This document shows, in pieces, positions 11,334 to 64,000 of a stretch of 64,000 nucleotides of DNA; the stretch's first letter is position 1; each line of letters starts with the position of its first letter. The position numbers were made by a program, and so were the translations under genes. The stretch is from NCBI GenBank assembly GCA_964017185.1, contig OZ024871.1:29116488-29180487 (forward strand). The letters run 5' to 3'. A model generated the notes under the pieces. It was not told the origin of the DNA, made no database searches, and saw only the letters and a program-made list of their open reading frames with translations. This DNA is from Rugalucina vietnamica (taxonomy: Eukaryota > Mollusca > Bivalvia > Lucinida > Lucinidae).

Positions 11334-11372
<39 letters not shown>

Positions 11373-11564: not shown

Positions 11565-11566
11565 TT

Positions 11567-11661
<95 letters not shown>

Positions 11662-33200: not shown

Positions 33201-33735
33201 TTGATTGGCCAAGTGGTTTCAGGGGAAAAGATGTTTCATTATCATGGAAATATACATGTGTATAGCCCTGGGGCAGGGGCAGACAACCCCCCAGGGGCTA
33301 AAATTTTCCATTAACATTAATCTTCTGTCCATTTGCCTATTCCCAGTAAGTTTTACCCATTAAATAGCATTTTACCATTTTTTCCCATTCAAATGCATTG
33401 GCGACCTAAGTTGACCTTGCCGTTAAATAGGTCAAGGTCATCCTAGGGTCATGATTTATATAAACTATGATGGGCCAGCATCCGCGATGCTACATACTAA
33501 GTTTCATGGAAATCGGCCCACTGGTTCTGGAGAAGAAGATTTTTAAACGTTTTTGCTATTTATAGCCATGGCGGCCATCTTGGTCATGTGACCAGGACCA
33601 TTTATATAAACTTTCGTTCCCCCTTCCTAAGGATACTCCACATGAAGTTTGGCTTTGATTGGCCAAGCGGTTTCAGAGGAGAAGATCTTTGAAATTGTGA
33701 AAGACGGATGGATAGACGCCGGAGCATGGGTGTAC
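30275..33735. mobile_element. Pearl-like repeat cluster (GGTCCTGTAAACGCTCACCTGAG)n
   Basis: Two starts with CCAATGGTCCTGTAAACGCT and CACCTGAG (30295 and 31796) are followed by diverged ~420-bp tandem units. Each unit contains TTTCAAAATCATAGGCCT, TATAGCCATGGCGGCCATC, TTGGTCATGTGACCTTGACC and GGGGCAGGGGCAGACAACC. The cluster ends in GACGGATGGATAGACGCCGG (33698-33720). It fills most of one ELAC2 intron. A 450-bp segment without these units (about 31320-31780) carries ACTATATAAGGCGCG and may be a separate insertion. Confidence 0.6.
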
Positions 33736-37062: not shown

Positions 37063-37149
37063 TTATCATAAATGTTGACTAGAAAACGTGCCTTGTGAGA
37101 CATGTGTTCCCCCGGCAGTTAGCCCCAGCCCCCCACCACCCCCAACCTT

Positions 37150-39035
37150 CCCCTGGACATGCTCATCCCTGACACACTGAACCTCTATTCCTACTGGACA
37201 TGCTCATCCCTGACACATTGAACCTCAATTCCCACTGGACATGCTCATCCCTGACACATTGAACCTCAATTCCCACTGGACATGCTCATCCCTGATACAA
37301 ACCTCAATTCCCACTGGACATGCTCATCACTGATACACTGAACCTCAATTCCCACTGGACATGCTCATCCCTGATACATTGAACCTCATTTCCCACTGAA
37401 CATGCCCATCACTAATACATTGAACCTCAAACCCCACTGGACATGCTCATCCCTGATACATTGAACCTCAATTCCTACTGAACATGCCCATCACTGACAT
37501 ATTGAACCTCAATGCCCACTGGACATGCTCATCACTGCCACATTGAACCTCAATTCCCACTGGACATGCTCATCCCTGATACATTGAACCTCTATTCCCA
37601 ACGAACATGCTCATCACTGACATATTGAACCTCAATGCCCACTGGACATGCTCATCACTGACGCATTGAACCTCAATTCCCACTGAACATTCTCATCACA
37701 GACATATTGAACCTCAATGCCCACTGGACATGCTCAGGCATCACTGACACATTGAACCTCAATTCCCACTGAACATGCGCATCACTGACATATTGAACCT
37801 CAATTCCCACTGGACATGCTCATCACTGACACAATGAACCTCAATTCCCACCGGACATGCTCATCCTTATACATTGAACCTCAACACCCACGAGACATGC
37901 TCATCACTGATACATTGAACCTCAATTCCCACTGGATATGCTCATCCCTGACACATTCAACCTCAATTCCCACTGGACATGCTCATCCCTGACACATTGA
38001 ACCTCAATTCCCACTGGAAATGCTCATCCTTATACATTGAACCTCAATTTGCACTGGACATGTTCATCACTGACACATTGAACCTCAATTCCCACTGGAC
38101 ATGCTCATCCCTGACACACTGAACCTCAATACCCACTGGACATACTCATCCTTATACACTGAACCTTGATTTCCACTGGACATGTTCATCACTGACACAT
38201 TGAACCTCAATTCCCACTGAACATGCTCATCACTGACACATTGAAATCGATTCCCACTGGACATGCTCATCCTTATACATTGAGCCACAATTCCCACTGG
38301 ACATGCTCATCACTGACACAATGAACCTCAATTCCCACTGAACATGCTCATCCCTGACACATTGCACCTCAATTCCCACTGGACATGCTCATCCCTGACA
38401 CATTAAACCTCAGTTCCCACTGGACATGCTCATCACTGACACACTGAAGCTCAATACCCACTGGACATGCTCATCACTGATGCAATGAACCTCAATTCCA
38501 ACTGGACATGCTCATCACTGATGCAATGAACCTCAATACCCACTGAACATGCTCATCACTGGCATATTGAACCTCAATGCCCACTGGACATGCTCATCAC
38601 TGATGCAAAGAACCTCAATACCCACTGGACATGCTCATCCCTGATACATTGAACCTCAATTCCCACTGGACATGCTCATCACTGATACATTGAACCTCAA
38701 TTCCCACTGGACATGCTCTTCAATGATGCAATGAACCTCAGTTCCCACTGAACATGCTCTTCACTGATGCAATGAACCTCAATTCCCACTGAACATGCTC
38801 TTCACTGATGCAATGAACCTCAATTCCCACTGGACATGCTCTTCACTGATGCATTGAACCTCAATACCCACTGGACATGCTCATCACTGATGCAATGAAC
38901 CTCAGTTCCCACTGGACATGCTCATAACTGATGCAATGAACCTCAATTTCCACAGGACATGCTCTTCACTGATGCAATGAACCTCAATTCCCACTGGACA
39001 TGCTCTACACTGATGCAATGAACCTCAATTACCGA
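37150..39035. repeat. 41-bp satellite, ~46 copies
   Basis: The units contain CATGCTCATCCCTGACACAT, TGAACCTCAATTCCCACTGG and one A. Variants swap CTGATACA, CTGATGCA and CTGACATA. Two older units of the same family are at 17945-18110, so the array expanded from an element-internal repeat. Confidence 0.92.
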
Positions 39036-44000: not shown

Positions 44001-44258
44001 ACCAACAAGTTCTGTTTTAATGGCAAAGCCAACTCCTGCTTCACGCCTCTCTTCACTTTTGCGTCCACTCCAGAAGAAGGTGTATCCAGCACCAACTTCT
44101 TTGATCTCCCCAACATCTGCTAACCGAGTCTCACTCAGAGCTGCTATCTGAATTCCATACCTCCCAAGTTCTCTGCCCACAAGGGCCGTTCTACGCTGCG
44201 GTCTATTTGACCCAGCACTGTCCATCAATGTTCGCACATTCCATGCGCCAATCCTCAA
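41028..44258 (-). CDS. LINE polyprotein: APE endonuclease, RT, C2H2 finger (intact)
   Basis: 1,076 aa without stop or frameshift. Endonuclease, residues 1-255: WNVRT (Asn7), SETR (Glu43), LLGDFNARVG (Asp154, Asn156), WTDHRLV (Asp249, His250). RT, about 495-825: SSGKAPGADAIPAEVYKAGG, HRGISLLSIAGKILAK, QCGFRKDRGTIDMIF, motif A FVDLTKAFD (628-636), motif B GVKQGCVMAPTLFS (686-699), motif C YADD (749-752), FTYLGSTLS. The C-terminal part has LRWTGHVIRMPDERLPKK and a canonical C2H2 finger (C1041, C1044, H1057, H1061). It nicks target DNA and copies its RNA there. All catalytic residues are kept, so the copy may be active or very recent. The start is the Met just before the first endonuclease strand. 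Confidence 0.93.
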   Translation of the reverse strand: MRIGAWNVRTLMDSAGSNRPQRRTALVGRELGRYGIQIAALSETRLADVGEIKEVGAGYTFFWSGRKSEERREAGVGFAIKTELVGKLSGLPKGINDRLMTLRLPLSGNKHATIVSAYAPTMTNPDEVKDKFYNDLDDIISATPRTDKLILLGDFNARVGTDHQTWEGVIGPEGVGKCNSNGLLLLRKCAEHDLLITNTVFRLPNRNKTSWMHPRSKHWHLIDYVIVRRTDRQDVRVTKTMCGADCWTDHRLVVSKLNLRIQPARRPQGKKAAKRLDVSKLNQDSMRQAFLTDICNQLDAIDLSSENPEENWTVFHKTVHSSAATTLGHPSRKHQDWFDENDDEIQKLLEEKHRLHKAHQDDTSSVSKKAAYSNVCKTVQTKLRDMQDSWLRKKTEEIQSFADRKDMKKFHDALKTIYGPKSSGATTLLSADGNTLLTDKEAILKRWAEHFNSVLNRPSSINEDAIDRLPQIECNVLLDEFPTVMETRKAVQQLSSGKAPGADAIPAEVYKAGGLPMADKLTELFHCMWRKEAIPQEFKDASIIHLYKRKGNPQVCDNHRGISLLSIAGKILAKILLNRLNVHLDQKGLIPESQCGFRKDRGTIDMIFTARQLQEKCQEQNVDLYMTFVDLTKAFDTVSRDGLWKIMAKFGCPPRFIAMVRQFHDGMQARVQNDGEFSEPFEVTNGVKQGCVMAPTLFSMMFSAMLMDAFQDSDTGFPIRYRFDGNIFNLRRLQAKTKVQTDVLDELLYADDMDKNASSEAKMQRAMDQVSQSCDNYDLTISTKKTEVVHQPAPGKPYNEPTITVNGEKLKVVDKFTYLGSTLSRAVHIDDEVTARIAKASVAFGRLRANVWERNGIKLDTKLKVYKAVVLPTLLYACETWTVYQRHAKRLNHFHLSCLRKLLKIKWQDKIPDTEVLKKAGMQSMHTVLKLAQLRWTGHVIRMPDERLPKKVFYGELQEGKRSQGGQKKRYKDTLKASLKDFDIPIGSWEQTAQERSKWRGLINKGAALHEKKRICEAERKRRERKANTNGPPADSMTLTCSTCNRQFRARIGLVSHQRTHQHTRTYSRNNDGLSH

Positions 44259-45237
44259 AGGGATTATCTTTGTTTTTTTCTTATTTTTTCCACCGCTAAA
44301 AAGGGATCCCCGCTGATCGCGGTTAACCAGCCAGGGGGTTTGAAGCAGGCAATTGTTTAGGGCACCTTTTCTAGCCCCTTCCCCATGCTACGGGGGTGAG
44401 CAGTGCGGTCCTAAATAGGTCTGCTCAGTCGCTCAGCCGACTGCCGAATTTCGCTTACTGCTTCTCCTCACGGAAAACGACCATATAGAACTGAGCCGCC
44501 TGCGTGCAGGTCTGCAACTACAGCTCCCAGTGTGTCCTACACCTGCTGCTTCGCCGCTCGCCCATCGCCACAGGACTTTTGTAGGTATGTGGGTGCATGT
44601 GTGATGAAATTGTTGTGTATGCAAGTGCTTGTGTGTTGAGAAATAAGATGACGTGCGCTATGAAATTGGATTATAGTGAGGAAGAGGTGCGCAGCGTCAA
44701 CCTCACTCACTCGTCCTCACCCAACTGTGCCCAGAGGCAAGACACAGGTCAAGACGTCTGGAGTTAGGTTTGGATGCAGTGGATGACCGTAACATCTATA
44801 GTGCCTTATCACGCTCTGCATGTTCCACAACATGTTGCTGTATCGCTTTCCGAACCGTTGAATCTGATGATTTCTTCCGCTCCGTCTACCGAAACAGTCT
44901 TTGCATATCTGGACCAGGCATATCCAGACACACAGGTTTTATTTTGGAATTACCTTTTCCTAGATGAATTGCTGGCCACAGCTGAAGGGCTCCATCTACC
45001 CTTTCATAGGTTTTGTTTAGAGACCTGTGAACTCCTAGGAGGACTGTCAACCAAAACTAATGAGTTCCCCCTGCCCAGCTAGGTTTTTGTGTAGAGAACT
45101 AGCAAACTCCTAGATGGGTTGCCGTCCAAGGCTAACGAGCCCCATCTGCACCGCATGGCAACAGGTTGTACTGATTACATGTTACAGTAGCAGATAATCT
45201 GACCTGACCTGAAGATAATCTGACCTGACCTGAATAA
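44259..45237 (-). promoter_or_regulatory. 5' region of the full-length LINE
   Basis: GC-richer than its surroundings. Near its outer end are about three imperfect ~80-100 bp units (marker AACTCCTAGGAGG or AACTCCTAGATGG, with CCATCTACC, CCCCTGCCC or CCATCTGCA, 44955-45165) that may act as promoter monomers (inference). A TCTGACCTGACCTGAA duplication sits at the very 5' end. Confidence 0.5.
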
Positions 45238-46802: not shown

Positions 46803-47340
46803 AGATTTCAACCCGTCAAATGCAACATGATGCAGCTGACAAATAAACGGTCTAGTAAAATACAGGCTAATTACGGCAGGTACTTCATACTCCCGGTCCC
46901 GAAATGTATCCAGGCATGTGCACATACTGTTTTACTCTGAAGAAAGCACATCTGATTATTTGTCCTGTGCTTATAAGAGCGTCTAATTTCGGGACACGGA
47001 GTATGAAGTACGAAGCCAAATAGCAAACATGTATTTTGTATGGGCCAAAAATTTCGGGACAATCATAGCTATGTAGGTATATAGGGATTGTGTCACACAT
47101 TTGTACATTTGATGCTGGTGTCTACGTAGCTATCTGGCAGTTAAGTTGCCTGAGTTGTGTAAGTTATAATAATTACCTTTGTTAGGACGACATAATCGAA
47201 ATGTAGATGGAAAAAGCTATAAAAAACAGATTTTTTTTTTTTGCGTATTGTCATCATGTTTTAAGGCCTTACGATAGTCCTGAAGCTCTAACTATTCCTT
47301 TCCAAGGAAACGGCCGTCAAACATATGTATCATAGACCAC
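46803..47340. other. Stretch with a ~130-bp fold-back
   Basis: GTACTTCATACTCCCGGTCC (46879-46901) is roughly inverted as GGGACACGGAGTATGAAGTA (46991-47010). The rest has no gene. Confidence 0.45.
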
Positions 47341-47720
47341 TATTGTAAGTTAAGTTCTGTAAGTTGTCATAGCTGACAGTGATAAAAGATAAGTTCATTA
47401 AGTTGGACTTAAGAACATTAGATCAAAACAACATGGCAAGATAGTTATACTGTTGCATCCAGGGCTGAGCTAAGTTCGATAAGTTACAATAGTTGCACAC
47501 AATAGCAAAGCTAAATGCACGTACATGTCTGCATCTAAGTTAAGTTTGATGAGTTGTATAAGTTAAGCAAGCTGAGTTATATAGGTTTTAGATTAATAAC
47601 TTGGATGAGTTAAGTTAAGCAAGTCGAAGTCTGGGTTTAATTAGCTATATGAGTAAGATATGTTATATGTATCACAGGACAAGCTAAGTTTGTTAAGTAG
47701 AGTAAGTTAAGCATGCTAAG
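47340..47720 (+). repeat. Degenerate edge of the 30-bp satellite
   Basis: AAGTTAAGT, TAAGTTGT and AAGTTCGATAAG-like words become denser and more regular towards 47720 but without stable period. Confidence 0.6.
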
Positions 47721-50700
47721 TTGAAGACTAAGTTTGATGAGCTGAATAAGTTAAGCGATGAGTTGGATAAGTTGAACAGTAAGTTCGATGAGTTGGATAA
47801 GTTGACCGATGAGTTAGATGAGTTAGAAAAGTTGAGCGTTGAGTTAGATAAGTTGGATAAGTTGAACATTAAGCTCGATGAGTTGCATGAGTTATACGCT
47901 GAGTCAGGTAAGTAGAGCGACGAGTTGGGTAAGCTGCATAAGTTTAATAGTAAGTTGGATGAGTTGGATAAGTTATACTTTGAGTTCGATGAGTTGGATA
48001 AGTTGAAAAGTAAGTTGGATGAGTTAAATAAGTTGTAAGCTGAGTTCGATGAGTTGGATAAGTTGCATGTTGATTTGGATGAGTTCGATAAGTTGAACAG
48101 TAAGTTGGATGAGTTGGATAAGTTATACGCTGAGTTCGATGAGTTGGATAAGTTGCATTCTGAGTTCGATGAGTTGCATAAGTTGAACTATAAGTTCGTT
48201 AAGTTTGATAAGTTGAACAGTGAGTTGGATGAGTTGTATAAGTTGTAAGCTGAGTTCGAAGAGTTGGATAAGTTGTAAGCTGAGTTGGATTAGTTGGATA
48301 AGTTTTAAGCTGAGTTGGGTAAGTTGCATAAGTTGAACAGTAAGTTCGATGAGTTCGATAAGTTGAACAGTAAGTTGGATGAGTTGGATAAATTGTAAGC
48401 TGAGTTCGATGAGTTGCATAAGTTGAACAGTAAGTTGGATGAGTTGGATAAGTTGTAAGCTGAGTTGGGTAAGTTGCATAAGTTCAACAGTAAGTTCGAT
48501 GAGTTCGATGAGTTGAACAGTGAGTTGGATGAGTTGGATAAGTTGTAAGCTGAGTTCGATGAGTTGCATAAGTTGAACAGTAAGTTGGATGAGTTGGATA
48601 AGTTGTAAGCTGAGTTGGGTAAGTTGCATAAGTTGAACAGTAAGTTCGATGAGTTCGATAAGTTAAACAGTAAGTTGGATGAGTTGGATAAGTTGTAAGC
48701 TGAGTTCGATGAGTTGGATAAGTTGCTTGTTGAGTTGAATGAGTTGGATAAGTTACACAAAGAGTTCGATGAGTTGGATAAGTTGCATGCTGAGTTCGAT
48801 GAGTTGCATAATTTGAACTATAAGTTCGTTAAGTTTGATAAGTTGAACAGTAAGTTGGATGAGTTGGATAAGTTGTAAGCTGAGTTGGGTAAGTTGCATA
48901 AGTTAAACAGTAAGTTGGATGAGTTGGATAAGTTGTAAGCTGAGTTGGGTAAGTTGCATAAGTTGAACAGTAAGTTGGATGAGTTGGATAAGTTGTAGAT
49001 GAGTTGGAGGAGTTGGATAAGTTGCATGTTGAGTTGGATGAGTTGGATAAGTTATGCGAAGAGTTCGATGTGTTGGATAAGTTGCATGCTGAGTTGGATG
49101 AGTTGCATAGGTTGAACTATAAGTTCGTTAAGTTTGATAAGTTGAACAGTAAGTTGGATGAGTTGGATAAGATGAAAGCTGAGTTGGGTAAGTTGCATAA
49201 ATTGAACAGTAAGTTGGATGAGTTGGATAAGTTGTAAGCTGAGTTGGATATGTTGCATAAACTGAACAGTAAGTTCGAAGAGTTCGATAAGTTGAACAGT
49301 AAGTTGGATGAGTTTGATAAGTTGTAAACTGAGTTCGATGAGTTGGATAAGTTGCATGTTGAGTTCGATGAGTTGGATAAGTTATTCGAAATGTTCGATG
49401 AGTTCGATAAGTTGAACAGTAAGTTGGATGAGTTGGATAAGTTGTAAGCTGAGTTGGGTAAGTTGCATAAGTTGAACAGTAAGTTCGATGAGTTTGATAA
49501 GTTGCTTGCTGAGTTGGATGAGTTGCATAAGTTGAACTATAAGTTCATTAAGTTCTATAAGTTGAACAGTAAGTTGGATGAGTTGGATAAGTTGTAAGCT
49601 GAGTTGGATAAGTTGGACAAGTTGAACAGTAAGTTCGAAGAGAACGATAAGTTGAACGGTAAGTTTGATGAGTTGGATAAGTTGTAAGCTGAATTGGGTA
49701 AGTTGCATAAGTTGATCAGTAAGTTTGATGAGTTGGATAAGTTGTAAGCTGAGTCGGATAAGTTGCATAAGTTGAACAGTAAATTCGAAGAGTTCGATAA
49801 GTTGAACAGTAAGTTGGATGAGTTGGATAAGTTGTAAGCTGAATTCGATGAGTTGGATAATTTGCATGTTGAGTTGGATGAGTTGGATAAGTTATACGAA
49901 ATGTTCGATGAGTTCGATAAGTTGAACAGTAAGTTAGATGAGTTGAATAAGTTGTAAGCTGAGTTGGGTAAGTTGCATAAGTTGAACAAAAAGTTCGATG
50001 AGTTGGATAAGTTGCATGCTGAGTTGGATGAGTTGCATAAGTTGAACTATAAGTTCGTTAAGTTCGATAACTTGAACACTAAGTTGGATGAGTTGGATAA
50101 GTTGTAAGCTGAGTTGGGTAAGTTGCATAAGTTGAACAGTAAGTTGGATGAGTTGGATAAGTTAAACGAAATGTTCGATGAGTTCGATAAGTTGAACAGT
50201 AAGTTGGACGAGTTGGATAAGTTGTAAGCTGAGTTGGATAAGTTGCATAAGTTGAACAGTAAGTTCGAAGAATTCGCTAAGTTGAACAGTAAGTTGGATG
50301 AGTTGGATAAGTTGTAAGCTGAGTTGGGTAAGTTGCATAAGTTGAACAGTAAGTTCGATGAGTTCGATGAGTTGAACAGTGAGTTGGATGAGTTGGATAA
50401 GTTGTAAGCTGAGTTCGATGAGTTGCATAAGTTGAACAGTAAGTTGGATGAGTTGGATAAGTTGTAAGCTGAGTTGGGTAAGTTGCATAAGTTGAACAGT
50501 AAGTTCGATGAGTTCGATAAGTTAAACAGTAAGTTGGATGAGTTGGATAAGTTGTAAGCTGAGTTCGATGAGTTGGATAAGTTGCTTGTTGAGTTGAATG
50601 AGTTGGATAAGTTACACAAAGAGTTCGATGAGTTGGATAAGTTGCATGCTGAGTTCGATGAGTTGCATAATTTGAACTATAAGTTCGTTAAGTTTGATAA

Positions 50701-53700
50701 GTTGAACAGTAAGTTGGATGAGTTGGATAAGTTGTAAGCTGAGTTGGGTAAGTTGCATAAGTTAAACAGTAAGTTGGATGAGTTGGATAAGTTGTAAGCT
50801 GAGTTGGGTAAGTTGCATAAGTTGAACAGTAAGTTCGATGAGTTGGATAAGATGAAAGCTGAGTTGGGTAAGTTGCATAAATTGAACAGTAAGTTGGATG
50901 AGTTGGATAAGTTGTAAGCTGAGTCGGATAAGTTGCATAAGTTGAACAGTAAATTCGAAGAGTTCGATAAGTTGAACAGTAAGTTGGATGAGTTGGATAA
51001 GTTGTAAGCTGAATTTGATGAGTTGGATAATTTGCATGTTGAGTTGGATGAGTTGGATAAGTTATACGAAATGTTCGATGAGTTCGATAAGTTGAACAGT
51101 AAGTTAGATGAGTTGAATAAGTTGTAAGCTGAGTTGGGTAAGTTGCATAAGTTGAACAGTAAGTTGGATAAGTTGGATAAGTTGTAAGCTGAGTTGGGTA
51201 AGTTGCATAAGTTGAACAGTAAGTTCGATGAGTTCGATAAGTTGAACAGTAAGTTGGATGAGTTGGATAAGATGAAAGCTGAGTTGGGTAAGTTGCATAA
51301 ATTGAACAGTAAGTTGGATGAGTTGGATAAGTTGTAAGCTGAGTCGGATAAGTTGCATAAGTTGAACAGTAAATTCGAAGAGTTCGATAAGTTGAACAGT
51401 AAGTTGGATGAGTTGGATAAGTTGTAAGCTGAGTTCGATGAGTTGGATAAGTTGCTTGTTGAGTTGAATGAGTTGGATAAGTTACACAAAGAGTTCGATG
51501 AGTTGGATAAGTTGCATGCTGAGTTCGATGAGTTGCATAATTTGAACTATAAGTTCGTTAAGTTTGATAAGTTGAACAGTAAGTTGGATGAGTTGGATAA
51601 GTTGTAAGCTGAGTTGGGTAAGTTGCATAAGTTAAACAGTAAGTTGGATGAGTTGGATAAGTTGCATGCTGAGTTGGATGAGTTGCATAGGTTGAACTAT
51701 AAGTTCGTTAAGTTTGATAAGTTGAACAGTAAGTTGGATGAGTTGGATAAGATGAAAGCTGAGTTGGGTAAGTTGCATAAATTGAACAGTAAGTTGGATG
51801 AGTTGGATAAGTTGTAAGCTGAGTCGGATAAGTTGCATAAGTTGAACAGTAAATTCGAAGGGTTCGATAAGTTGAACAGTAAGTTGGATGAGTTGGATAA
51901 GTTGTAAGCTGAATTCGATGAGTTGGATAATTTGCATGTTGAGTTGGATGAGTTGGATAAGTTATACGAAATGTTCGATGAGTTCGATAAGTTGAACAGT
52001 AAGTTAGATGAGTTGAATAAGTTGTAAGCTGAGTTGGGTAAGTTGCATAAGTTGAACAAAAAGTTCGATGAGTTGGATAAGTTGCATGCTGAGTTGGATG
52101 AGTTGCATAAGTTGAACTATAAGTTCGTTAAGTTCGATAACTTGAACAGTAAGTTGGATGAGTTGGATAAGTTGTAAGCTGAGTTGGGTAAGTTGCATAA
52201 GTTGAACAGTAAGTTGGATGAGTTGGATAAGTTAAACGAAATGTTCGATGAGTTCGATAAGTTGAACAGTAAGTTGGACGAGTTGGATAAGTTGTAAGCT
52301 GAGTTGGATAAGTTGCATAAGTTGAACAGTAAGTTCGAAGAATTCGCTAAGTTGAACAGTAAGTTGGATGAGTTGGATAAGTTGTAAGCTGAGTTGGGTA
52401 AGTTGCATAAGTTGAACAGTATGTTCGATGAGTTCGATGAGTTGAACAGTGAGTTGGATGAGTTGGATAAGTTGTAAGCTGAGTTCGATGAGTTGCATAA
52501 GTTGAACAGTAAGTTGGATGAGTTGGATAAGTTGTAAGCTGAGTTGGGTAAGTTGCATAAGTTGAACAGTAAGTTCGATGAGTTCGATAAGTTAAACAGT
52601 AAGTTGGATGAGTTGGATAAGTTGAAAGCTGAGTTCGATGAGTTGGATAAGTTGCTTGTTGAGTTGAATCAGTTGGATAAGTTACACAAAGAGTTCGATG
52701 AGTTGGATAAGTTGCATGCTGAGTTCGATGAGTTGCATAATTTGAACTATAAGTTCGTTAAGTTTGATAAGTTGAACAGTAAGTTGGATGAGTTGGATAA
52801 GTTGTAAGCTAATTTGGGTAAGTTGCATAAGTTAAACAGTAAGTTGGATGAGTTGGATAAGTTGTAAGCTGAGTTGGGTAAGTTGCATAAGTTGAACAGT
52901 AAGTTCGATGAGTTCGATAAGTTGAACAGTAAGTTGAATGAGTTGGATTAGTTGTAGATGAGTTGGAGGAGTTGGATAAGTTGCATGTTGAGTTGGATGA
53001 GTTGGATAAGTTATGCGAAGAGTTCGATGTGTTGGATAAGTTGCATGCTGAGTTGGATGAGTTGCATAGGTTGAACTATAAGTTCGTTAAGTTTGATAAG
53101 TTGAACAGTAAGTTCGATGAGTTGGATAAGATGAAAGCTGAGTTGGGTAAGTTGCATAAATTGAACAGTAAGTTGGATGAGTTGGATAAGTTGTAAGCTG
53201 CGTTGGATATGTTGCATAAACTGAACAGTAAGTTCGAAGAGTTCGATAAGTTGAACAGTAAGTTGGATGAGTTTGATAAGTTGTAAACTGAGTTCGATGA
53301 GTTGGATAAGTTGCATGTTGAGTTCGATGAGTTGGATAAGTTATTCGAAATGTTCGATGAGTTCGATAAGTTGAACAGTAAGTTGGATGAGTTGGATAAG
53401 TTGTAAGCTGAGTTGGGTAAGTTGCATAAGTTGAACAGTAAGTTCGATGAGTTGGATAAGTTGCTTGCTGAGTTGGATGAGTTGCATAAGTTGAACTATA
53501 AGTTCATTAAGTTCTATAAGTTGAACAGTAAGTTGGATGAGTTGGATAAGTTGTAAGCTGAGTTGGATAAGTTGGACAAGTTGAACAGTAAGTTCGAAGA
53601 GAACGATAAGTTGAACAGTAAGTTGGATGAGTTGGATAAGTTGTAAGCTGAATTGGGTAAGTTGCATAAGTTGATCAGTAAGTTTGATGAGTTGGATAAG

Positions 53701-55497
53701 TTGTAAGCTGAGCCGGATAAGTTGCATAAGTTGAACAGTAAATTCGAAGAGTTCGATAAGTTGAACAGTAAGTTGGATGAGTTGGATAAGTTGTAAGCTG
53801 AATTCGATGAGTTGGATAATTTGCATGTTGAGTTGGATGAGTTGGATAAGTTATACGAAATGTTCGATGAGTTCGATAAGTTGAACAGTAAGTTAGATGA
53901 GTTGAATAAGTTGTAAGCTGAGTTGAGTAAGTTGCATAAGTTGAACAAAAAGTTCGATGAGTTGGATAAGTTGCATGCTGAGTTGGATGAGTTGCATAAG
54001 TTGAACTATAAGTTCGTTAAGTTCGATAACTTGAACAGTAAGTTGGATGAGTTGGATAAGTTGTAAGCTGAGTTGGGTAAGTTGCATAAGTTGAACAGTA
54101 AGTTGGATGAGTTGGATAAGTTAAACGAAATGTTCGATGAGTTCGATAAGTTGAACAGTAAGTTGGACGAGTTGGATAAGTTGTAAGCTGAGTTGGATAA
54201 GTTGCATAAGTTGAACAGTAAGTTCGAAGAATTCGCTAAGTTGAACAGTAAGTTGGATGAGTTGGATAAGTTGAAAGCTGAGTTCGATGAGTTGGATAAT
54301 TTGCATGTTGAGTTACATGAGTTGGATAAGTTATACGAAATGTTCGATGAGTTCGATAATTTGAACAGTCTGTTGGATGAGTTTGATAAGTTGTAAGCTG
54401 TGTTGGGTAAGTTGCATAAGTTGAACAGTAAGTTGGATGAGTTGGATAAGTTGCATGCTGAGTTGGATGAGTTGCATTAGTTGAACTATAATTTCGTTAA
54501 GTTCGATAAGTTGAACAGTAAGTTGGATGAGTTGGATAAGTTGTAAGCTGAGTTGGGTAAGTTGCATAAGTTGAACAGTAAGTTGGATGAGTTGGATAAG
54601 TTATACGAAATGTTTGATGACTTCGATAAGTTGAACAGTAAGTTGGATGAGTTGGATAAGTTGTAAGCTGAGTTGGGTATGTTGCATAAGTTGAACAGTA
54701 AGTTCGATGAGTTGGATAAGTTGCATGCTGAGTTGGATGAGTTGCATAAGTTGAACTATAAGTTCGTTAAGTTCGATAAGTTGAACAGTAAGTTGGATGA
54801 GTTGGATAAGTTGTAAGCTGAGTTGGGTAAGTTGCATTAGTTGAACAGTAAGTTGGATGAGTTGGATATGTTGTAAGCTGAGTTGGGTAAGTTGCATAAG
54901 TTGAACAGTAAGTTCGATGAGTTCGATAAGTTGAACAGTAAGTTGGATGAGTTGGATAAGTTGTAAGCTGAGTTCGATGAGTTGGATAAGTTGTAAGCTG
55001 AGTTGGGTAAGTTGCATAAGTTGAAGAGTAAGTTCGATGAGTTCGATAAGTTGAACAGTTAGTTGGATGAGTTGGATAAGTTGTAAGCTGAGTTCGGTGA
55101 GTTGGATAAGTTGCATGTTGAGTTGGATGAGTCGGATAAGTTATATGCTGAGTTCGATGAGTTGGATAAGTTGAACAGTAAGTTGGATGAGTTCGATAAG
55201 TTGGTTATGTTGCATGCTGAGTTCGTTGAGTTGGATAAGTTATACGTTGAGTTCGATGAGTTGGATAAGTTGCATGCTGATTTCGAAAAGTTGCATAAGT
55301 TGAACAGTAAGTTGGATGAGTTGGATAAGTTGTAACCTGAGTTCGGTGAGTTGGATAAGTTTTACGCTGAGTTCGATGAGTCGGATAAGAAGCATGCTGA
55401 GTTCGATGAGCTGCATATGTTATACGCTGGGTTTCGATGAGTCGGATAAGTTGCATGCTGAGTTCGATGAGTGTCATAAGTTGCATGAAAGTTGGAA
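47721..55497 (+). repeat. 30-bp minisatellite array 1 (G-rich strand on top), ~260 units
   Basis: The basic unit is 30 bp and built of modules ending in AGTTG: GATGAGTTG, GATAAGTTG and a 12-base AACAGTAAGTTG or a variant (CATGCTGAGTTG, TAAGCTGAGTTG, GGTAAGTTG). Read in one frame it is a decapeptide such as DELDKLNSKL, but the common TAAGCTGAG variant places a stop every few units. The register is kept almost exactly for kilobases. The only lasting shifts are the same 1-nt loss at about 48994 and 52954 (TAAGCTGAG to TAGATGAG) and a 9-bp gain near 55201. Overlapping ORFs on both strands are by-products. The upper strand is poor in C. Confidence 0.95.
48482..54400 (+). repeat. Nested block duplications (1,859 / 2,070 / 3,959 bp) in array 1
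   Basis: A distinctive run (GAGTTGAACAGTGAG after two TTCGATGAG) recurs near 48482, 50341 and 52411. A TTACACAAAGAG marker is at 48752, 50611, 51481 and 52681. TAGATGAGTTGGAGGAG is at about 48994 and 52954. Segments 49382-49867 and 53341-53826 differ at only a few codons. All offsets equal a multiple of 30, or a multiple of 30 minus 1 when they span the shared 1-nt loss. Confidence 0.85.
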
Positions 55498-56375
55498 CGA
55501 CTGCGATGATTTAGCAAGATTATCAATTTGTAATCAACATGGACTCGGCATCTGGTGTCAAACTAATGACCCGTCTAGTATATATACTGATAAAAAAAAA
55601 ATGAAAACGCCACAATCAGTTTTCTGTAAAATTTGTACATACTATGATTTTGTTAAGTACAAATGCATGTTGTTTAGATATCAGACGACAAAATGCAAGA
55701 AATTTGTTTTTTATTTAACGTGGATAGCATGTTATTTATTCAATGTCGACCAAAGAAGTGCCAAAGTAAGTAAATGATGCAACACACGTGCGCAATCATT
55801 GGATCAATGAAAGGATTAAAATTAGCTATGTGTCCCCATTCCAAACTTCAATATACTGCTCAGCAGTAAACTGACAGCATGTTTGTACTGCGATTTGGTA
55901 CGTATTATATTGGGGATGCAAATAAATCTTCTCCTGGTAATTTTTAAGTTTTAAAATGTGCGCATGTGCAGTTAATTTGTTTACTTGCTTGCACTATTTT
56001 GGTCATCTCTTCAGTGTTTAACAAGCTGAAAATATGGTTTGTGCATTGCCGTTGTACAAATGACTTCGTGTGATATAGAGTCAAATCGGAAAATGTAGGT
56101 GTTGTATCCTTAATTGAGAAAAATGATAGTTTGTTGCATTTTTTTTCAGTATAGTTATCTTAGATATTTGGTCATGTAGGACAGTTTTGGTATTAGACGC
56201 CCCTACACCTAACAATTACACGTATCACTTCAGCTGGACCACATTTCTGAAACTCTCTGGATCGGTATATTTTAACCTCAGGCACTTCAAAAGACCGACT
56301 AGCACGTGGAAGGTTAATCAGTACGATATATCGCATGTCGGTTGCTCGCACACTACTGAAGTATTTGTAAAGCTC
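55498..56375. other. Left part of the spacer between inverted satellites
   Basis: AT-rich, apparently single-copy within the window, with no recognisable gene. Short ORFs only. Confidence 0.4.
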
Positions 56376-56519
56376 GGTCAAGTAAGCAGAAAATTTGCTA
56401 CAGCAAAAAACGGTCAAGTTAGCAGCAAATTTGCTGCAGCAATAAACGGTCAAGTTAGCAGCAAAATTGCTGCAGCGAAAAACGGTCAAGTTAGCAGCAA
56501 ATTTGCTGCTAGCAGAAAA
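56376..56519 (+). repeat. 36-bp tandem repeat, four copies, palindromic core
   Basis: Four consecutive 36-bp units starting GGTCAAGT(T/A)AGCAG (56376, 56412, 56448, 56484). The centre is palindromic. The last copy contains the perfect 20-bp palindrome TAGCAGCAAATTTGCTGCTA (56492-56511). Confidence 0.9.
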
Positions 56520-56539
56520 ATAGAAAAAAAATGTCGATT

Positions 56540-56937
56540 AATTCTTTTGTTTTAGTTTGGCTGTCATCGCTATAGAAAACGATGACGAAGGCCGAAAACA
56601 GAACTTTTCTATCTCACCTATGGTCGGATTTATGGTGTACCAAACCCTCCCGGAGCAGAAAAAAATGAAAAAAAAACAATTGTCAAAGATTTTTTCGTTT
56701 TAGTCTGGCTGTCATCGCTATAGAAAACGATGACGGAGGCCGAAAAAAGAACTTTTCTATCTCACCTATGGACGGAGTTATGGTGTACCAAACGCTCCCA
56801 GCAGAAAAAAATGAAAAAAAAAAAAAAAAAAAAGGCACAGATTTTTTCGTTTTGGTCTGGCTGTCATTGCTATAGAAAACAATGACGAAGGCCGAAAACA
56901 GAACTTTTCTATCTCACCTATGGGCGGAGTCATGGTG

Positions 56938-56968
<31 letters not shown>

Positions 56969-57378
56969 TTTTCGTTTTGGTCTGGCTGTCATTGCTATAG
57001 AAAACAATGACGAAGGCCGAAAACAGAACTTTTCTATCTCACCTATGGGCGGAGTCATGGTGTACCAAACCCTCCCAGCAGAAAAAATGAAAAAAAAAAT
57101 GTCAAAGATTTTTTTCGTTTTAGTCTGGCTGTCATCGCTATAGAAAACAATGACGAAGGCCGAAAACAGAACTTTTCTATCTCACCTATGGGCGGAGTTA
57201 TGGTGTACCAAACCCTCCCAGCAGAAAAAATTGAAATTTTTTTTTGTCAAAGATTTTTTTCGTTTTAGTCTGGCTGTCATCGCTATAGAAAACGATGACG
57301 AAGTCCGATAACAGAACTTTTCTATCTCATCTATGGGCGAAGTTATGGTGTACCAAACACTCCCAGCAGAAAAAAATG

Positions 57379-57420
<42 letters not shown>

Positions 57421-57825
57421 TCAAAGATTTTTTTTCGTTTTAGTCTGGCTGTCATCGCAATAGAAAACGATGACGAAAGCCGAAAACAACACTTTTCTAT
57501 CTCACCTATGTGCGGAGTTATGGTGTACCAAAACCTCCCAGCAGAAAAAATGAAAAAAATTGTCAAAGGTATTTTTTGTTTTAGTCTGGCTGTCATTGCT
57601 ATAGAAAACGATGACGAAGGTCGAAAACAGAACTTTTCTATCTCACCTATGGGCGGAGTTATGGTGTACCAAACCCTCCCAGCAGAAAAATTGAAATTTT
57701 TTTTGTTAAGGATTTTTTTTTTCGTTTTAGTCTGGCTGTCATCGCTATAGAAAACGACGACGAAGGCCGAAAACAGAACTTTTCTATCTCACCTATGGGC
57801 GGAGTTATGGTGTACCACCCGCACC
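56540..57825 (+). repeat. 125-180 bp tandem repeat with homopolymer joins, ~9 copies
   Basis: Units start around TTTTAGTCTGGCTGTCATCG near 56551, 56696, 56847, 56972, 57116, 57261, 57438, 57588 and 57724. They share CTTTTCTATCTCACCTATGG and GGTGTACCAAACCCTCCCAG. Units are joined by A or T runs of 8 to ~39, whose length explains the variable period. The Lys- and Phe-rich ORFs are artefacts of these runs. Confidence 0.9.
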
Positions 57826-58100
57826 TCAAATCTCCGCATCAACCATGCGGAACTCCGCACAACATCTGCGGAATTCCGCTAAAACATGCGGAATATCAGC
57901 ATTTTTTGTGCGGAATTCCGCATGAACATGCGGAACTCCGCAGAGGTTTCACAATATGCGGAATTTCTTCCGCATCTCTCATCGGAAACTTTTCCGCACC
58001 AGCAGCGGAAAAATCGGACTTAATACTTTTTTAGTGCGGAAACAATGCGGAAAGTGTAGACTCAGACAATTTTTGAAGCGGAAAATATCTTAGATTATTT
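57826..58100. repeat. Cluster of GCGGAATTCCGC-type palindromes
   Basis: More than ten GCGGAA or TTCCGC words in 275 bp, several as full palindromes: TGCGGAATTCCGCA at 57909-57922 and the near copy TGCGGAATTCCGCT at 57867-57880. Spacers are 8-25 bp. A second cluster is at 58893-58950. Confidence 0.8.
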
Positions 58101-58890
58101 TGCATGCGGAAAATAACTTAGAAAAATTTTACTTGGACAATTTTTGTATATGGGACTTTTCTTAGTGTCATTGTCCCACTGTATCTTAGGAAAATTATAG
58201 TGCAGAAATTTTGACTTTTTACAAACAAAAAAATTCATAAAAAAGATACCAAATTATCGCTGCCATGTATTTCTGGAGTCAAACTGTCAAATGTTAGAGA
58301 CCATGCGCAAAGGATATCATTATCGGGAGATTTTAAATTATGTCCGGGAATAATCTGGGAAATGTCAGGTAATTTCGCTTCCGCCCGAGAGTGGCAACCC
58401 TTTCTTGGAGGTCCAACCAAATACTCCATAGACTCTGACAAAGATGAATAATAAAGATGCAGACGATTTCGTGGAAACAATTTAGTTTATTGAAATTTTA
58501 TAACTTATGCAATTCGTTTTGGCAAACTTTATAATGTTAGGAATTATATATGTGTACCAGAAGATGGCTCAAAAGTTAGCATGTTCGATTCCACACATGA
58601 AAATATTTCTAATCCCATTTTCGCTTCCACTGATTCAAGAGCACTTTTAAGTTTCAACTGACAAAAGAAATGTACCCTAAGTACTAGTAATCTGCCCCAA
58701 ACATGCTTGTCTAGGAATAGTGTGGTTAGGATAGCTGACTGTCCAGATATGACCATAGCTGTTGACTACATGTGGACATAAAGCAATGAAACAAACAAAC
58801 ACAACCATATTGAGATAATGTAATAATATACGTACATTTCTTTTGTCTCTCTTGACTTTAAACCAGCACCTCAAACCCCTGTATCGCATT
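58101..58890. other. Spacer segment between palindrome clusters
   Basis: No convincing gene. It is enclosed by the two GCGGAATTCCGC clusters, so the whole 57826-58950 block may be one element. Confidence 0.35.
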
Positions 58891-58950
58891 GAGCGGAGCT
58901 CCGCATCACATGCGGAATTTTTTCCGCACCACATGCGGAATTCCGCATCA
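58891..58950. repeat. Second GCGGAATTCCGC cluster
   Basis: GCGGAGCTCCGC, two ATGCGGAATT words and the perfect TGCGGAATTCCGCA (58934-58947) within 60 bp. Confidence 0.8.
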
Positions 58951-59577
58951 GACCATTTTGAATATATTATTGCTGACCAATAGGAAATCAGAATTTCAAG
59001 TACTGACTCACTTCCTGTTTTCAAATATTAGAGGGAGCATTGTTTGAAAGGAAGTGTTCTAACATGTGCCATTTTTAAAATTGTGTTATAATGAAAATTA
59101 TAGTTAAGGAGTTTAGTTCTTTAGCATTGTAAGTAGCCAGTATTTATATGAATTGTCTTTTTATGTTGCTCTATGCCTTCTCTGTGTTGAACTTTGCTAC
59201 TGCAGATTGCTTCAATAAATTTTGTCTCAGTCCATGAATTTAGTCCAACAAAACAATGATTAGAACATTAGAATCTCTAGAGTGGGATGTTAAACCACAA
59301 TACAAAATTACAGGTCTTCATATAAAATAGTTATTTCTCAAAGCAATTCAGACATAACTTTCTCCAGATTAAAATGTGTTTCCTTTGCATTCTCTGAAAC
59401 AGCTTGACCTTTAGCCTTGTTCTTACTGTCCCGGTTCTACCCCGGTGAAGGCAAGCCAGTATACTGTGATAAACCGAGTAACGGTTTCTACCAACGTTGA
59501 TCGTGTTCTCAGTCAGGGTGTTACCGTGTAGCCTCAGTCTTGTTCCTAGTTTTACCATGCTGTTGTCCTGGTGCTCA
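58951..59577. other. Right part of the spacer
   Basis: Non-coding. It includes an AATAAA (59214-59219, plus strand) after an AT-rich stretch that could be a 3' UTR end, but no ORF leads into it. Confidence 0.35.
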
Positions 59578-62500
59578 ACATGCAACTTATCCAACTCATC
59601 CAACTCAGCTTACAACTTATCTAACTCATCCAACTTACTGTTCAACTTATCCAACTCATCGAACTCAGCTTACAACTTATCGAAATCATCGAACTTACTG
59701 TTCAACTTATGCAACTTACCCAACTTAGCTTACAACTTATCCAACTCATCCAACGTACTGTTCAACTTATGCAACTTACCCAACTCAGCTTACAACTTAT
59801 CCAACTCATCCAACTTACTGTTCAACTTATCGAACTTCACGAACTTATAGTTCAACTTATGCAACTCATCCAACTCAGCATGCAACTTATCCAACTCATC
59901 GAACTCACCTTACAACTTACCCAACTCACCTAACTTACTGTTCAACTTATCGAACTCATCGAACTTGCTGTTCAACTTATGCAACTTACCCAACTCAGCT
60001 TACAACTTATCCAACTCATCCAACTTACTGTTCAACTTATGCAACTTACCCAACACATCCATCTTACTGTTCAACTTATCGAACTTAACGAACTTAGAGG
60101 TCAACTTATGCAACTCATCCAACTCAGCATGCAACTTATCCAACTCATCGAACATTTCGTATAACTTATCCAACTCATCCAACTCAGCTTACAACTTATC
60201 CAACTCATAGAACCCACCTTACAACTTACCCAACTCACCTAACTTACTGTTCAACTTATCGAACTCATCTAACTTGCTGTTCAACTTATGCAACTTACCC
60301 ATCTCAGCTTACAACTTATCCAACTCATCCAACGTTTTGTTCAACTTATGCAACTTACCCAACTCATCCATCTTACTGTTCAACTTATCGAACTTAACGA
60401 ACTTATAGTTCAACTTATGCAACTCATCCAACTCAGCATGCGACATCCAACTCATCGAACTCAGCGTATATCTTATCCAACTCATCCACCTCAACATGCA
60501 ACTTATCCAACTCATCAAACTCAGCTTACAACTTATCCAACTCATCCATTTTACTCTTCAACTTATCGAACTCATCGAACTTACTGATCAACTTATCGAA
60601 CTAATCGAACTTACTGATCAACTTATCGAACTAATCGAACTTACTGTTCAACTTATGCAACTTACCCAACTCAGCTTACAACTTACCAAACTTACTGTTA
60701 AACTTATCGAACTTAACGAACTTATAGTTCAATTTATCGAATTCATCAAACTTACTGTTCAATTTATGCAACTGACCAAACTCAGCTTACAACTTATCGA
60801 ACTATCGAACTTAACGAACTTATAGTTCAACTTATGCAACTCATCCAACTCAGCATGCAACTTATCCAACTCATCGAACTCAGCGTATAACTTATCCAAC
60901 TCATCCAACTCAACATGCAACTTATCAAACTCATGGAACTCAGCGTATAACTTATCCAACTCATCGAACTTACTGTTCAACTTATGCCACTTATCCAACT
61001 CATCCAACTTACTGTTCAACTTATCCAACTCATCGAACTCAGCTTACAACTTATCCAACTCATCCAACTTACTGTTCAACTTATCGAACTTACTGTTCAA
61101 CTTATCGAACTTACCCAACTCAGCTTACAGCTTATCCAACTCATGCAACATACTATTCAACTAATGCAACTTACCCAACACAGCTTACAACTTATCCAAC
61201 TCATCCAACTTACTGTTCGACTTATCGAACTCATCGAACACAGCGTATAACTAATCCAACTCATCCAACTCAACATGCAACTTATCAAACTCATGGAACT
61301 CAGCGTAAAACTTATCCAACTCATCCAACTCAACATGCAACTTATCCAACTCATCCAACTCAGCTTACAACTTATCTAACTCATCCAACTTACTGTTCAA
61401 CTTATCCAACTCATCGAACTCAGCTTACAACTTATCGAACTCATCGAACTTACTGTTCAACTTTTGCAACTTACCCAACTTAGCTTACAACTTATCCAAC
61501 TCATCCAACTTACTGTTCAACTAATCTAACTTAACGAACTTATAGTTCAATGTATCGAACTCATCGAACACTGTTCAATTTATGCAACTTACCCAACTCA
61601 GCTTACAACTTATCGAACTATCGAACTTAACGAACTTATAGTTCAACTTATGCAAATTATCCAACTCAGCATGCAACTTATCCAACTCACCGAACTCAGC
61701 GTATAACTTATCCAACTCACCCAACTCAACATGCAACTTATCAAACTCATGGAACTCAGCGTAAAACTTATCCAACTCATCGAACTTACTATTCAAGTTA
61801 TGCCACTTATCCAACTCATCCAACTTACTGTTCAACTTATCCAAGTCATCGAACTCAGCTTACAACTTATCCAACTCATCCAACTTACTGTTCAACTTAT
61901 CAAACTTACTGTTCAACTTATGGAACTTAACCAACTCAGCTTACAACTTATCCAACTCATCCAACATACTGTTCAACTAATGCAACTTACCCAACTCAGC
62001 TTACAACTTATCCAACTCATCCAACTTACTATTCGACTTATCGAACTCATCGAACTCAGCGTATAACTTATCCAACTCATCCAACTCAACATGCAACTTA
62101 TCAAACTCATGGAACTCAGCGTAAAACTTATCCAACTCATCCAACTCAACATGCAACTTATCAAACTCATCCAACTCAGCTTACAACCTATCTAACTCAT
62201 CCAACTTACTGTTCAACTTATCCAACTCATCGAACTCAGCTTACAACTTATCGAACTCATCGAACTTACTGTTCAACTTATGCAACTTACCCAACTTAGC
62301 TTACAACTTATCCAACTCATCCAACTTACTGTTCAACTTATGCAACTTACCCAACTCAGCTTACAACTTATCCAACTCATCCAACTTACTGTTCAACTTA
62401 TGCAACTTACCTAACTCAGGTTACAACTTATCCAACTCATCCAACTTACTGTTCAACTTATCGAACTTAACGAACTTATAGGTCAACTTATGCAACTCAT

Positions 62501-64000
62501 CCAACTCAGTAAGCAACTTATCCAACTCATCGAACATTTTGTATAACTTATCCAACTTATCCAACTCAGCTTACAACTTATCCAACTCATCGAACCCACC
62601 TTACAACTTACCCAACTCACCTAACTTACTGTTCAACTTATCGAACTCATCTAACTTGCTGTTCAACTTATGCAACTTACCCAACTCAGCTTACAACTTA
62701 TCCAACTCATCCAACGTTTTGTTCAACTTATGCAACTTACCCAACTCATCCATCTTACTGTTCAACTTATCGAACTTAACGAACTTATAGTTCAACTAAT
62801 GCAACTCATCCAACTCAGCATGCGACATCCAACTCATCGAACTCAGCGTATATCTTATCCAACTCATCCACCTCAACATGCAACTTATCCAACTCATCCA
62901 ACTCAGCTTACAACTTATCCAACTCATCCAACTTACTCTTCAACTTATCGAACTCATCGAACTTACTGATCAACTTATCGAACTAATCGAACTTACTGTT
63001 CAACTTATGCAACATACCCAACTCAGCTTAAAACTTACCAAACTTACTGTTCAACTTATCGAACTTAACGAACTTATAGTTCAGTTTATCGAACTCATCG
63101 AACTTACTGTTCAATTTATGCAACTGACCCAACTCAGCTTACAACTTATCGAACTATCGAACTTAACGAACTTATAGTTCAACTTATGCAACTCATCCAA
63201 CTCAGCATGCAACTTATCCAACTCATCGAACTCAGCGTATAACTTATCCAACTCATCCAACTCAATATGCAACTTATCAAACTCATGGAACTCAGCGTAT
63301 AACTTATCCAACTCATCGAACTTACTGTTCAACTTATGCCACTTATCCAACTCATCCAACTTACTGTTCAACTTATTCAACTCATCGAACTCAGCTTACA
63401 ACTTATCCAACTCATCCAACTTACTGTTCAACTTATCGAACTTACTCTTCAACTTATCGAACTTACCCAACTCAGCTTACAACTTATCCAACTCATGCAA
63501 CATACTATTCAACTAATGCAACTTACCCAACACAGCTTACAACTTATCCAACTCATCCAACTTACTGTTCGACTTATCGAACTCATCGAACACAGCGTAT
63601 AACTAATCCAACTCATCCAACTCAACATGCAACTTATCAAACTCATAGAACTCAGCGTAAAACTTATCCAACTCATCCAACTCAACATGCAACTTATCCA
63701 ACTCATCCAACTCAGCTTACAACTTATCTAACTCATCCAACTTACTATTCAACTTATCCAACACATCGAACTCAGCTTACAACTTATCGAACTCATCGAA
63801 CTTACTGTTCAACTTTTGCAACTTACCCAACTTAGCTTACAACTTATCCAACTCATCCAACTTACTGTTCAACTAATCTAACTTAACGAACTTATAGTTC
63901 AATGTATCGAACTCATCGAACTTACTGTTCAATTTATGCAACTTACCCAACTCAGCTTACAACTTATCGAACTATCGAACTTAACGAACTTATAGTTCAA
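59578..64000 (-). repeat. 30-bp minisatellite array 2, inverted, runs off the window
   Basis: The same modules as array 1 on the opposite strand (CAACTTATCC, CAACTCATCC, CAACTTACTGTT, CAACTCAGCTTA). Period is 30 bp near the edge, then drifting more than array 1 because of small indels. A block of about 2.35-2.38 kb is repeated: 60288-60587 matches 62670-62969, and 60984-61354 matches 63336-63706. The array continues past 64000. Its unit order differs from array 1, so it is not a simple mirror copy. Confidence 0.95.

What the first reader, a model, noticed from the sequence alone, without database searches (positions are those of the whole stretch)
47340..64000. Two huge convergent arrays of one 30-bp minisatellite separated by a 4.1-kb spacer
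At least 12 kb of the same 30-bp unit occurs in opposite orientations (47.7-55.5 kb forward, 59.6-64 kb and beyond reverse). The arms are highly similar, so the locus could form a giant hairpin, produce double-stranded RNA if transcribed, or mark an inversion breakpoint. Edges and internal order differ, so it is not a plain palindromic duplication. No known satellite family with this unit comes to mind.
Basis: partly seen in the sequence, partly recalled or inferred. Interest (0 to 1): 0.8.

Follow-up and report, generated by a model that had tools for sequence, protein, structure and literature searches.

The report
Giant transposon with minisatellite arms
The two huge mirrored repeat arrays are the arms of one 22.5-kb jumping DNA element that has dozens of relatives elsewhere in this genome, so the odd structure is a mobile element rather than an assembly error or an inversion scar.

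Summary
Array A (47757-55487, +) and array B (59574 to coordinate 69009, beyond the window, -) lie inside one DNA transposon, 46875-69362 (22,488 bp). It has imperfect 29-bp terminal inverted repeats (GGCAGG/GGCTTA plus a shared 23-bp core) and a perfect 8-bp target-site duplication, CTAATTAC. The end pattern occurs 288 times genome-wide (reversed control 0). From 191 listed ends I paired 44 elements of 192 bp to 36.7 kb; 43 join a left to a right end. Of 36 pairs checked, 30 have a perfect 8-bp duplication, including 16 of 20 above 13 kb. The left 7.8 kb of two large copies on different contigs differ by 21 substitutions plus whole-unit array changes, so large copies moved recently. It works like a Foldback/Galileo/Tetris element, with arms several times longer than the Galileo arms I read about. 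No transposase was found inside the 44 pairs. GG termini, 8-bp duplications and end layout point to the Merlin superfamily (about 50%, unproven). Misassembly and locus-specific inversion are not supported.

The parts
46867..46874 (.). left target-site duplication CTAATTAC; the identical 8 bp follow the right end, outside the window (coordinates 69363-69370)
46875..46903 (+). left terminal inverted repeat GGCAGGTACTTCATACTCCCGGTCCCGAA; the right end (rc, outside the window, about 69334-69362) reads GGCTTATACTTCATACTCCCGGTCCCGAA
46988..47017 (-). internal inverted TIR-like copy (GGCTTCGTACTTCATACTCCGTGTCCCGAA on the minus strand)
46875..47756 (+). left terminal/subterminal region, including a degenerate AAGTT-rich lead-in from about 47340; 93.6-97.3% identical over its whole or nearly whole length in 16 of 18 fetched copies (L023 is split and L031 partial)
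47757..55487 (+). left arm: array A, about 258 units of 30 bp (9+9+12), consensus about GATGAGTTGGATAAGTTGAACAGTAAGTTG, with kb-scale internal duplications (offsets 3959, 2070, 1859)
55488..59573 (.). central spacer; its first about 0.9-1.3 kb is shared with three other fetched copies (L019, L027, L028); contains a 36-bp x4 repeat (56375-56520) and an about 145-bp tandem repeat (56511-57817); no Pfam domain in the six overlapping ORFs scanned
59574..64000 (-). right arm: array B, the same unit inverted; continues beyond the window to coordinate 69009 (9,436 bp in all), followed by a 353-bp right terminal region ending at 69362

Best explanation
It is one copy of a non-autonomous, foldback-like cut-and-paste DNA transposon. 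Left end, array A, spacer, inverted array B and right end form a 22.5-kb unit bounded by matching ends and one 8-bp target duplication (shown), so it inserted as a whole (inferred from that). A transposase supplied from elsewhere would recognise the 29-bp ends, excise the element and reinsert it (inferred). The inverted layout is part of the family, not of this locus (shown by its recurrence); the two arms probably diverged before the family spread (clear for right arms, weak for left arms). Arms gain and lose whole 30-bp units and carry kb-scale duplications, and central DNA differs or is missing between copies (shown between copies; the recombination or replication route is inferred). The array unit resembles a motif 64-91 bp inside the right end, so the arms may be amplified accessory binding sites for the transposase, as proposed for Galileo (weakly supported). 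The source transposase is most likely of the Merlin superfamily (about 50%; not found). The confidence below is for the mobile-element reading, not for Merlin.
For: Perfect 8-bp duplication around the window copy. 288 end matches with 0 in the reversed control. 44 convergent pairs, 43 of them left-right; 8/8 duplications in 30 of 36 checked, 16 of 20 large. Copies share the left 0.9 kb at 93.6-97.3% identity while outer flanks differ. Arrays abut head-to-head in five other copies. Five right arms share 36-49% of their 40-mers with the window's right arm and 9-25% with its left arm. C16 and C6 copies: 21 mismatches over the left 7.8 kb, gaps of 90, 30 and 60 bp plus 1-2 bp. Merlin elements L045, L050 and L052 of this genome have 8-bp duplications and GG-variable-core ends; Merlin is described with 5'-GG, terminal repeats of 24-462 bp and 8-9-bp duplications (PMC8101967, passages). 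Right-end motif: 11 of 500 shuffles reach the observed score.
Against: No transposase domain lies inside the 44 pairs: 0 of 56 Merlin, 0 of 59 MULE, 0 of 2 KDZ hits and 0 of 116 hAT hits (by eye; 150 of 199 hAT candidates were scored). P-type transposases were not searched. 6 of 36 checked pairs lack a perfect duplication, among them the C16 copy (6 of 8); the C14 R-R pair is probably a wrong pairing. Many ends stay unpaired, and about a third of the 288 end matches were not listed by position. For left arms the same-side signal is weak: 15 of 16 share more with the window's left arm, 12 of them by only 1-9 points, and one is tied. Array lengths rest on one assembly. The terminal-repeat core does not resemble the array unit and the left end shows no array-like motif, which weakens the binding-site idea. 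The core differs from those of the Merlin elements seen.
Confidence: 0.93

Rival explanations
1. Same mobile element, but mobilised by another superfamily that makes 8-bp duplications (Zisupton/KDZ, MULE, hAT or P) rather than Merlin. This competes with the Merlin sub-claim only.
For: Zisupton and hAT make 8-bp duplications (PMC12730594 passages). Tetris, a foldback element with 8-10-bp duplications, was assigned to Mutator by its authors (PMC4079207 section 17). KDZ, MULE and hAT domains exist in this genome.
Against: No such domain lies inside the 44 pairs (hAT by eye; P not searched). The duplication consensus nAAATTTn is not the hAT pattern nTnnnnAn (recalled). GG termini fit Merlin; the two Kyakuja families have CA..TG termini.
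Confidence: 0.45
2. Assembly artefact: one array assembled in two orientations.
For: Long tandem arrays are hard to assemble; I had no reads.
Against: Both outer ends carry one perfect 8-bp duplication. The layout recurs at other sites. The two arms have different internal duplications, and right arms of other loci match the window's right arm better than its left arm.
Confidence: 0.02
3. Locus-specific inversion breakpoint or segmental inverted duplication of a satellite array.
For: Opposite orientation of one unit; sharp inner edge of B.
Against: Paired copies with the same outer ends lie on contigs C1-C6 and C8-C16, with target-site duplications in 30 of 36 checked.
Confidence: 0.02
4. The arrays are (or were) a repetitive coding exon (DELDKLxAEL decapeptide).
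For: 30 bp is 10 codons; A keeps sub-repeat spacing in multiples of three almost throughout; few indels.
Against: 324 stops in that frame of A; variability does not peak at third codon positions (0.67, 0.44 and 0.63 bits for positions 1-3 in A); indels shift the frame in B.
Confidence: 0.01

Closest known systems
Drosophila Foldback (FB/FB-NOF) elements (recalled, no paper read)
   Same: Long inverted arms built of short tandem sub-repeats around a central loop
   Different: 8-bp rather than 9-bp duplications (FB value recalled); arms up to 9.4 kb here; asymmetric left and right termini; no gene found in the spacer
Galileo (P superfamily; PMC3573991 passages, PMC3688188 abstract)
   Same: Long internally repetitive inverted arms; arm length varies with repeat number, independently in each arm; the longest-armed copies are non-autonomous; transposase sites in the tandem repeats, the most proximal about 70 bp from the end
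   Different: Galileo arms reach about 1.26 kb in D. mojavensis and its duplications are 7 bp; here 7.7 and 9.4 kb, 8 bp, GG ends
Tetris of Drosophila virilis (PMC4079207: abstract, sections 17 and 20)
   Same: Non-autonomous foldback element with tandem repeats in its inverted arms; no autonomous copy found; its repeats also form arrays of up to 66 copies
   Different: Unit about 220 bp; only three structurally complete copies; assigned by its authors to Mutator
Merlin superfamily (PMC8101967 passages; L045, L050 and L052 in this genome)
   Same: 5'-GG ends, 8-bp duplications, variable bases after GG that differ between the two ends, then a shared core
   Different: Different core sequence; no transposase found; 22.5 kb rather than about 1.6 kb
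Teratorn of medaka (PMC6431247 passage, PMC5601938 listing)
   Different: piggyBac superfamily with an active transposase, largely herpesvirus-derived; not array-built as far as I read
Cg_HINE Helentrons of oyster (PMC7492417 abstract)
   Same: Non-autonomous mobile elements carrying satellite-like arrays
   Different: Helentron class with central repeats; ours has terminal inverted repeats, 8-bp duplications and two inverted arrays

Membership tests
Cut-and-paste DNA transposon (TIR order) | Terminal inverted repeats at both ends | tested here: met
   26 of 29 bp identical between left and right ends; 288 genome matches, control 0
Cut-and-paste DNA transposon (TIR order) | Fixed-length target-site duplication | tested here: met
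   8/8 in 30 of 36 pairs checked; window copy CTAATTAC
Cut-and-paste DNA transposon (TIR order) | Encodes a DDE transposase (autonomous copy) | tested here: not met
   0 of 56 Merlin, 59 MULE and 2 KDZ hits and 0 of 116 hAT hits (by eye) fall in the 44 pairs; other superfamilies not searched; filed as non-autonomous
Foldback-type elements (structural class) | Long inverted arms with internal tandem sub-repeats around a loop | tested here: met
Foldback-type elements (structural class) | Forms a hairpin in vivo or in vitro | not testable with these tools
   Follows from about 80% complementarity of the arms; not measured
Drosophila FB family proper | 9-bp duplication (recalled) | tested here: not met
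   8-bp duplications; FB terminal sequence not compared
Merlin superfamily | 5'-GG termini, terminal repeats of 24-462 bp | tested here: met
Merlin superfamily | 8- or 9-bp duplications | tested here: met
Merlin superfamily | DDE_Tnp_IS1595 transposase within the family | tested here: not met
   0 of 56 hits inside 44 pairs; the one hit 7.4 kb inside a right end belongs to its own nested element
Merlin superfamily | Terminal-repeat core related to known Merlin ends | tested here: inconclusive
   Same GG-variable-core layout as L045 and L050 but different core letters
Helitron/Helentron | No target-site duplication, no terminal inverted repeats (recalled) | tested here: not met
Zisupton/KDZ | 8-bp duplications plus KDZ transposase | tested here: inconclusive
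   Duplication length fits; 2 KDZ hits, neither near a listed end; KDZ ends not compared

The most novel reading that the evidence does not exclude
A class of giant, apparently protein-free transposons (up to about 37 kb between paired ends) whose bulk is two convergent satellite arrays amplified from a transposase accessory-binding motif near one end. The arms would recruit the transposase in trans, keep tens of kilobases of non-coding DNA mobile, and seed dispersed inverted satellites: a foldback lifestyle for the Merlin superfamily.
Probability: 0.25. Interest if true: 0.72.

Novelty: new variant of a known kind. Interest (0 to 1): 0.55.

Why it matters
The foldback elements I read about have arms of about 1 kb. 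Here 20 of 44 paired elements exceed 13 kb, 16 of them with intact target-site duplications, and one pair of large copies is nearly identical where compared. Non-coding cargo of that size moved by a cut-and-paste system, and long convergent satellite arrays delivered to many sites, give a direct way to study how satellites arise, how inverted repeats of 8-9 kb persist, and whether arrays attract transposases. It also warns that such loci can look like misassemblies and yet be real.

Tried and rejected
Coding exon: rejected. Hairpin-guided loss of the spacer: the junctions of five spacer-less copies plus L036 scored 22-39 against a null median of 25 from 400 random joins, so nothing special. 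Array as copies of the terminal repeat: not supported (192 of 200 shuffles reached the score; 92 of 500). The Merlin gene 7.4 kb inside a right end (C12) looked like the missing transposase but is a separate 1.6-kb Merlin element with its own duplication GAAAGATG. Six ORFs overlapping the window spacer gave no Pfam domain; other ORFs of the spacer and of L019, L028, L042 and L043 were only read by eye. Solo right ends L037, L038 and L040 and solo left end L041: no transposase recognised by eye. The unit outside this genome: 3 stretches in viral contigs with an 18-mer, not followed; 0 in prokaryote genomes with a 33-base pattern. Literature: the rows shown by the searches (20 of 84; 9 of 9; 12 of 59; 8 of 24; 6 of 6; 10 of 41; 10 of 49) include no Merlin foldback or minisatellite-armed giant transposon; I saw listings, abstracts, passages and two short sections, and Repbase and most subscription journals are not held.
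Full report
Check of the observation. TRF, motif spacing and a profile parse confirm two arrays of one 30-bp unit in opposite orientation. The unit is 9+9+12 bp, roughly GATGAGTTG GATAAGTTG NNNNNNRAGTTG. Array A occupies 47757-55487 with a degenerate lead-in from about 47340; array B begins sharply at 59574. Local alignments between A and the reverse complement of B reach about 80% over 4.4 kb. The frame of A that reads DELDKL has 324 stops; minus-strand frames stay open up to 289 aa but read as simple repeats. Column variability does not peak at third codon positions.

The decisive step was the genome search. The window lies at C3:29116488-29180487 of a 1.09-Gb, 47-contig assembly of an unnamed organism. 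The outer edge of array A (47700-47999) has a nearly full-length match at 40 sites, its own included, at 91-100% identity; only 40 of 330 candidates were scored, so this is a lower bound. I fetched 20 stretches of 10 kb: two continuing the window and 18 around other copies. Array B continues to window coordinate 69009. All 18 loci share the left end region with the window; in 16 it is whole or nearly so from 46875 inward (L024 lacks the first 14 bp), in L023 it is split and in L031 partial, and the sequence outside differs. The right end region beyond array B is shared by six of the 18: L015, L016, L017, L018, L023 and L031.

The ends are those of a DNA transposon. Left: GGCAGGTACTTCATACTCCCGGTCCCGAA; right, reading inward: GGCTTATACTTCATACTCCCGGTCCCGAA. 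The window copy is 22,488 bp (46875-69362), flanked by CTAATTAC on both sides. A pattern for these ends with up to 2 mismatches hits 288 places and its reversed control none. I had 191 ends by position: 88 left ends with up to 1 mismatch, the 100 listed of 104 exact right ends, and three right-like variants. They give 44 convergent pairs: 25 L-R, 18 R-L, 1 R-R. Sizes run from 192 bp to 36.7 kb, 20 above 13 kb, 520,737 bp in all. The R-R pair at C14 is probably a wrong pairing, because L024 lies between its ends and holds a left end whose first bases are changed. Flanks were examined for 36 of 44 pairs: all 20 large and 16 of 24 small. Thirty have an identical 8-bp duplication, including 16 of the 20 large; the misses score 2, 3, 4, 5, 5 and 6 of 8. 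One miss (L033) carries a second end-like sequence just outside, after which AAAATGGC matches (sequence). The duplications are A+T-rich (73%), consensus nAAATTTn.

How the arms behave. In five fetched copies (L016, L017, L018, L023, L024) the + and - arrays abut without a spacer, each at a different junction; L015 and L036 look similar with short right arms. The first 0.9-1.3 kb of the window spacer is present in L019, L027 and L028 but not in the part of another spacer held in L043. Right arms are side-specific: L016_R, L017_R, L018_R and L023_R share 39-49% of their 40-mers with the window's right arm and 9-18% with its left; the partial L024_R shares 36% and 25%. For 16 left arms of other copies the trend is in the same direction but mostly weak: 15 share more with the window's left arm (12 of them by 1-9 points, L015, L016 and L017 by 15-25) and L030 is tied; the window's right arm is the longer target, which works against this. 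So the inverted layout belongs to the family, and the arms probably diverged before it spread. Each arm has its own kb-scale duplications: offsets 3959, 2070 and 1859 bp in A; 2672, 5026 and 2352 bp in B. L020 on C16 (pair of 36,189 bp) and L026 on C6 (29,553 bp) sit in different flanks, yet over 7.8 kb of left end plus array they differ by 21 substitutions, gaps of 90, 30 and 60 bp, and gaps of 1-2 bp. The rest of these two elements was not compared, and the C16 duplication is 6 of 8 (C6: 8 of 8). A large copy thus moved recently, and its array changed by whole units. Left-end divergence among 17 copies has median K2P 0.029 and maximum 0.041.

Which transposase. Domain searches found 56 Merlin, 2 KDZ, 59 MULE and 116 hAT matches (for hAT 150 of 199 candidates were scored). 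None lies inside the 44 pairs (by script for the first three; hAT by eye). P-type transposases were not searched. The only Merlin gene close inside an end (C12, 7.4 kb) belongs to its own element with duplication GAAAGATG. Of eight Merlin loci taken from the 56 hits, L045 and L050 are complete elements with 8-bp duplications and ends of the form GG + variable bases + shared core; L047 and L048 show end-like pairs (20 and 18 of 24) without a duplication; L044, L046, L049 and L051 gave none in the fetched stretch. L052 later gave a third complete one. The layout and duplication length match our element, the core letters do not. PMC8101967 (passages) describes Merlin by 5'-GG ends, terminal repeats of 24-462 bp and 8- or 9-bp duplications. 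I put Merlin at about 50%.

Possible role of the arms. A stretch 64-91 bp inside the right end aligns 26 of 28 bases, with two gaps, to an array unit; 11 of 500 dinucleotide shuffles score as high. The left end (340 of 500) and the terminal-repeat core (92 of 500) do not stand out. For Galileo, the most proximal transposase site lies about 70 bp from the end, with further sites in the tandem repeats (PMC3688188 abstract). The parallel is suggestive only. Junctions in spacer-less copies are not enriched for hairpins.

Comparison with known kinds. The architecture is that of Foldback (recalled), Galileo and Tetris. Galileo arms reach about 1.26 kb (PMC3573991 passages); Tetris has about 220-bp repeats, arrays of up to 66 copies, and no known transposase. 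Giant TIR elements with long inverted repeats exist, such as Teratorn, but that one carries an active transposase (PMC6431247 passage). Here arms reach 7.7 and 9.4 kb and pairs up to 36.7 kb. I call it a new variant of a known kind. The rows shown by searches describe no such element, but the library lacks Repbase and most subscription journals.

Limits. Array lengths and orders depend on one assembly; no reads were available. Copy counts are lower bounds.

Noticed in passing
window 10596-12554: A second, apparently unrelated foldback-like element of 1,959 bp: terminal repeats identical over the first 110 of 110 bp and extending to about 188 bp with 3 mismatches, built of 34-bp palindromic units (GGCTAGGGATACGGTACCGTATCCCTAGCC), flanked by a 9-bp duplication ATACTAAAT.
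   Followed up: partly
window 1211-2770, minus strand: A single 519-aa open frame matching cytochrome P450 (PF00067, E 1.2e-88).
   Followed up: no
window 6464-10094 and 41028-44387, minus strand: LINE-type reverse transcriptase plus endonuclease frames, the first followed by a GDSL-esterase-like frame just below its cut-off; reverse transcriptase pieces at 22561-23578.
   Followed up: no
window 37148-39030; also 3730-5620, 26417-26990, 31878-33678, 34995-35866: Other tandem arrays: 46 copies of a 41-bp unit with strong GC skew, and arrays of 148/309-, 156-, 455- and 190-bp units.
   Followed up: no
window 46988-47017: The left end holds a second, inverted terminal-repeat-like copy, so its first about 146 bp look like a small complete element; the large element may have arisen as a composite (inference).
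   Followed up: partly
L033 about 867-920: A right end directly followed by another end-like sequence in the opposite orientation, with the matching target-site duplication outside it (sequence).
   Followed up: partly
L037, L042: Both loci hold a repeat reading about YINHDPVMTLTKFMARSTWVA, probably another dispersed element; in L042 it lies in an about 2-kb insertion relative to L028.
   Followed up: no
L052 7013-8658, L045 598-2202, L050 631-2223: Complete 1.6-kb Merlin elements with perfect 8-bp duplications; L052 is 96% identical to L045 and 92% to L050.
   Followed up: partly
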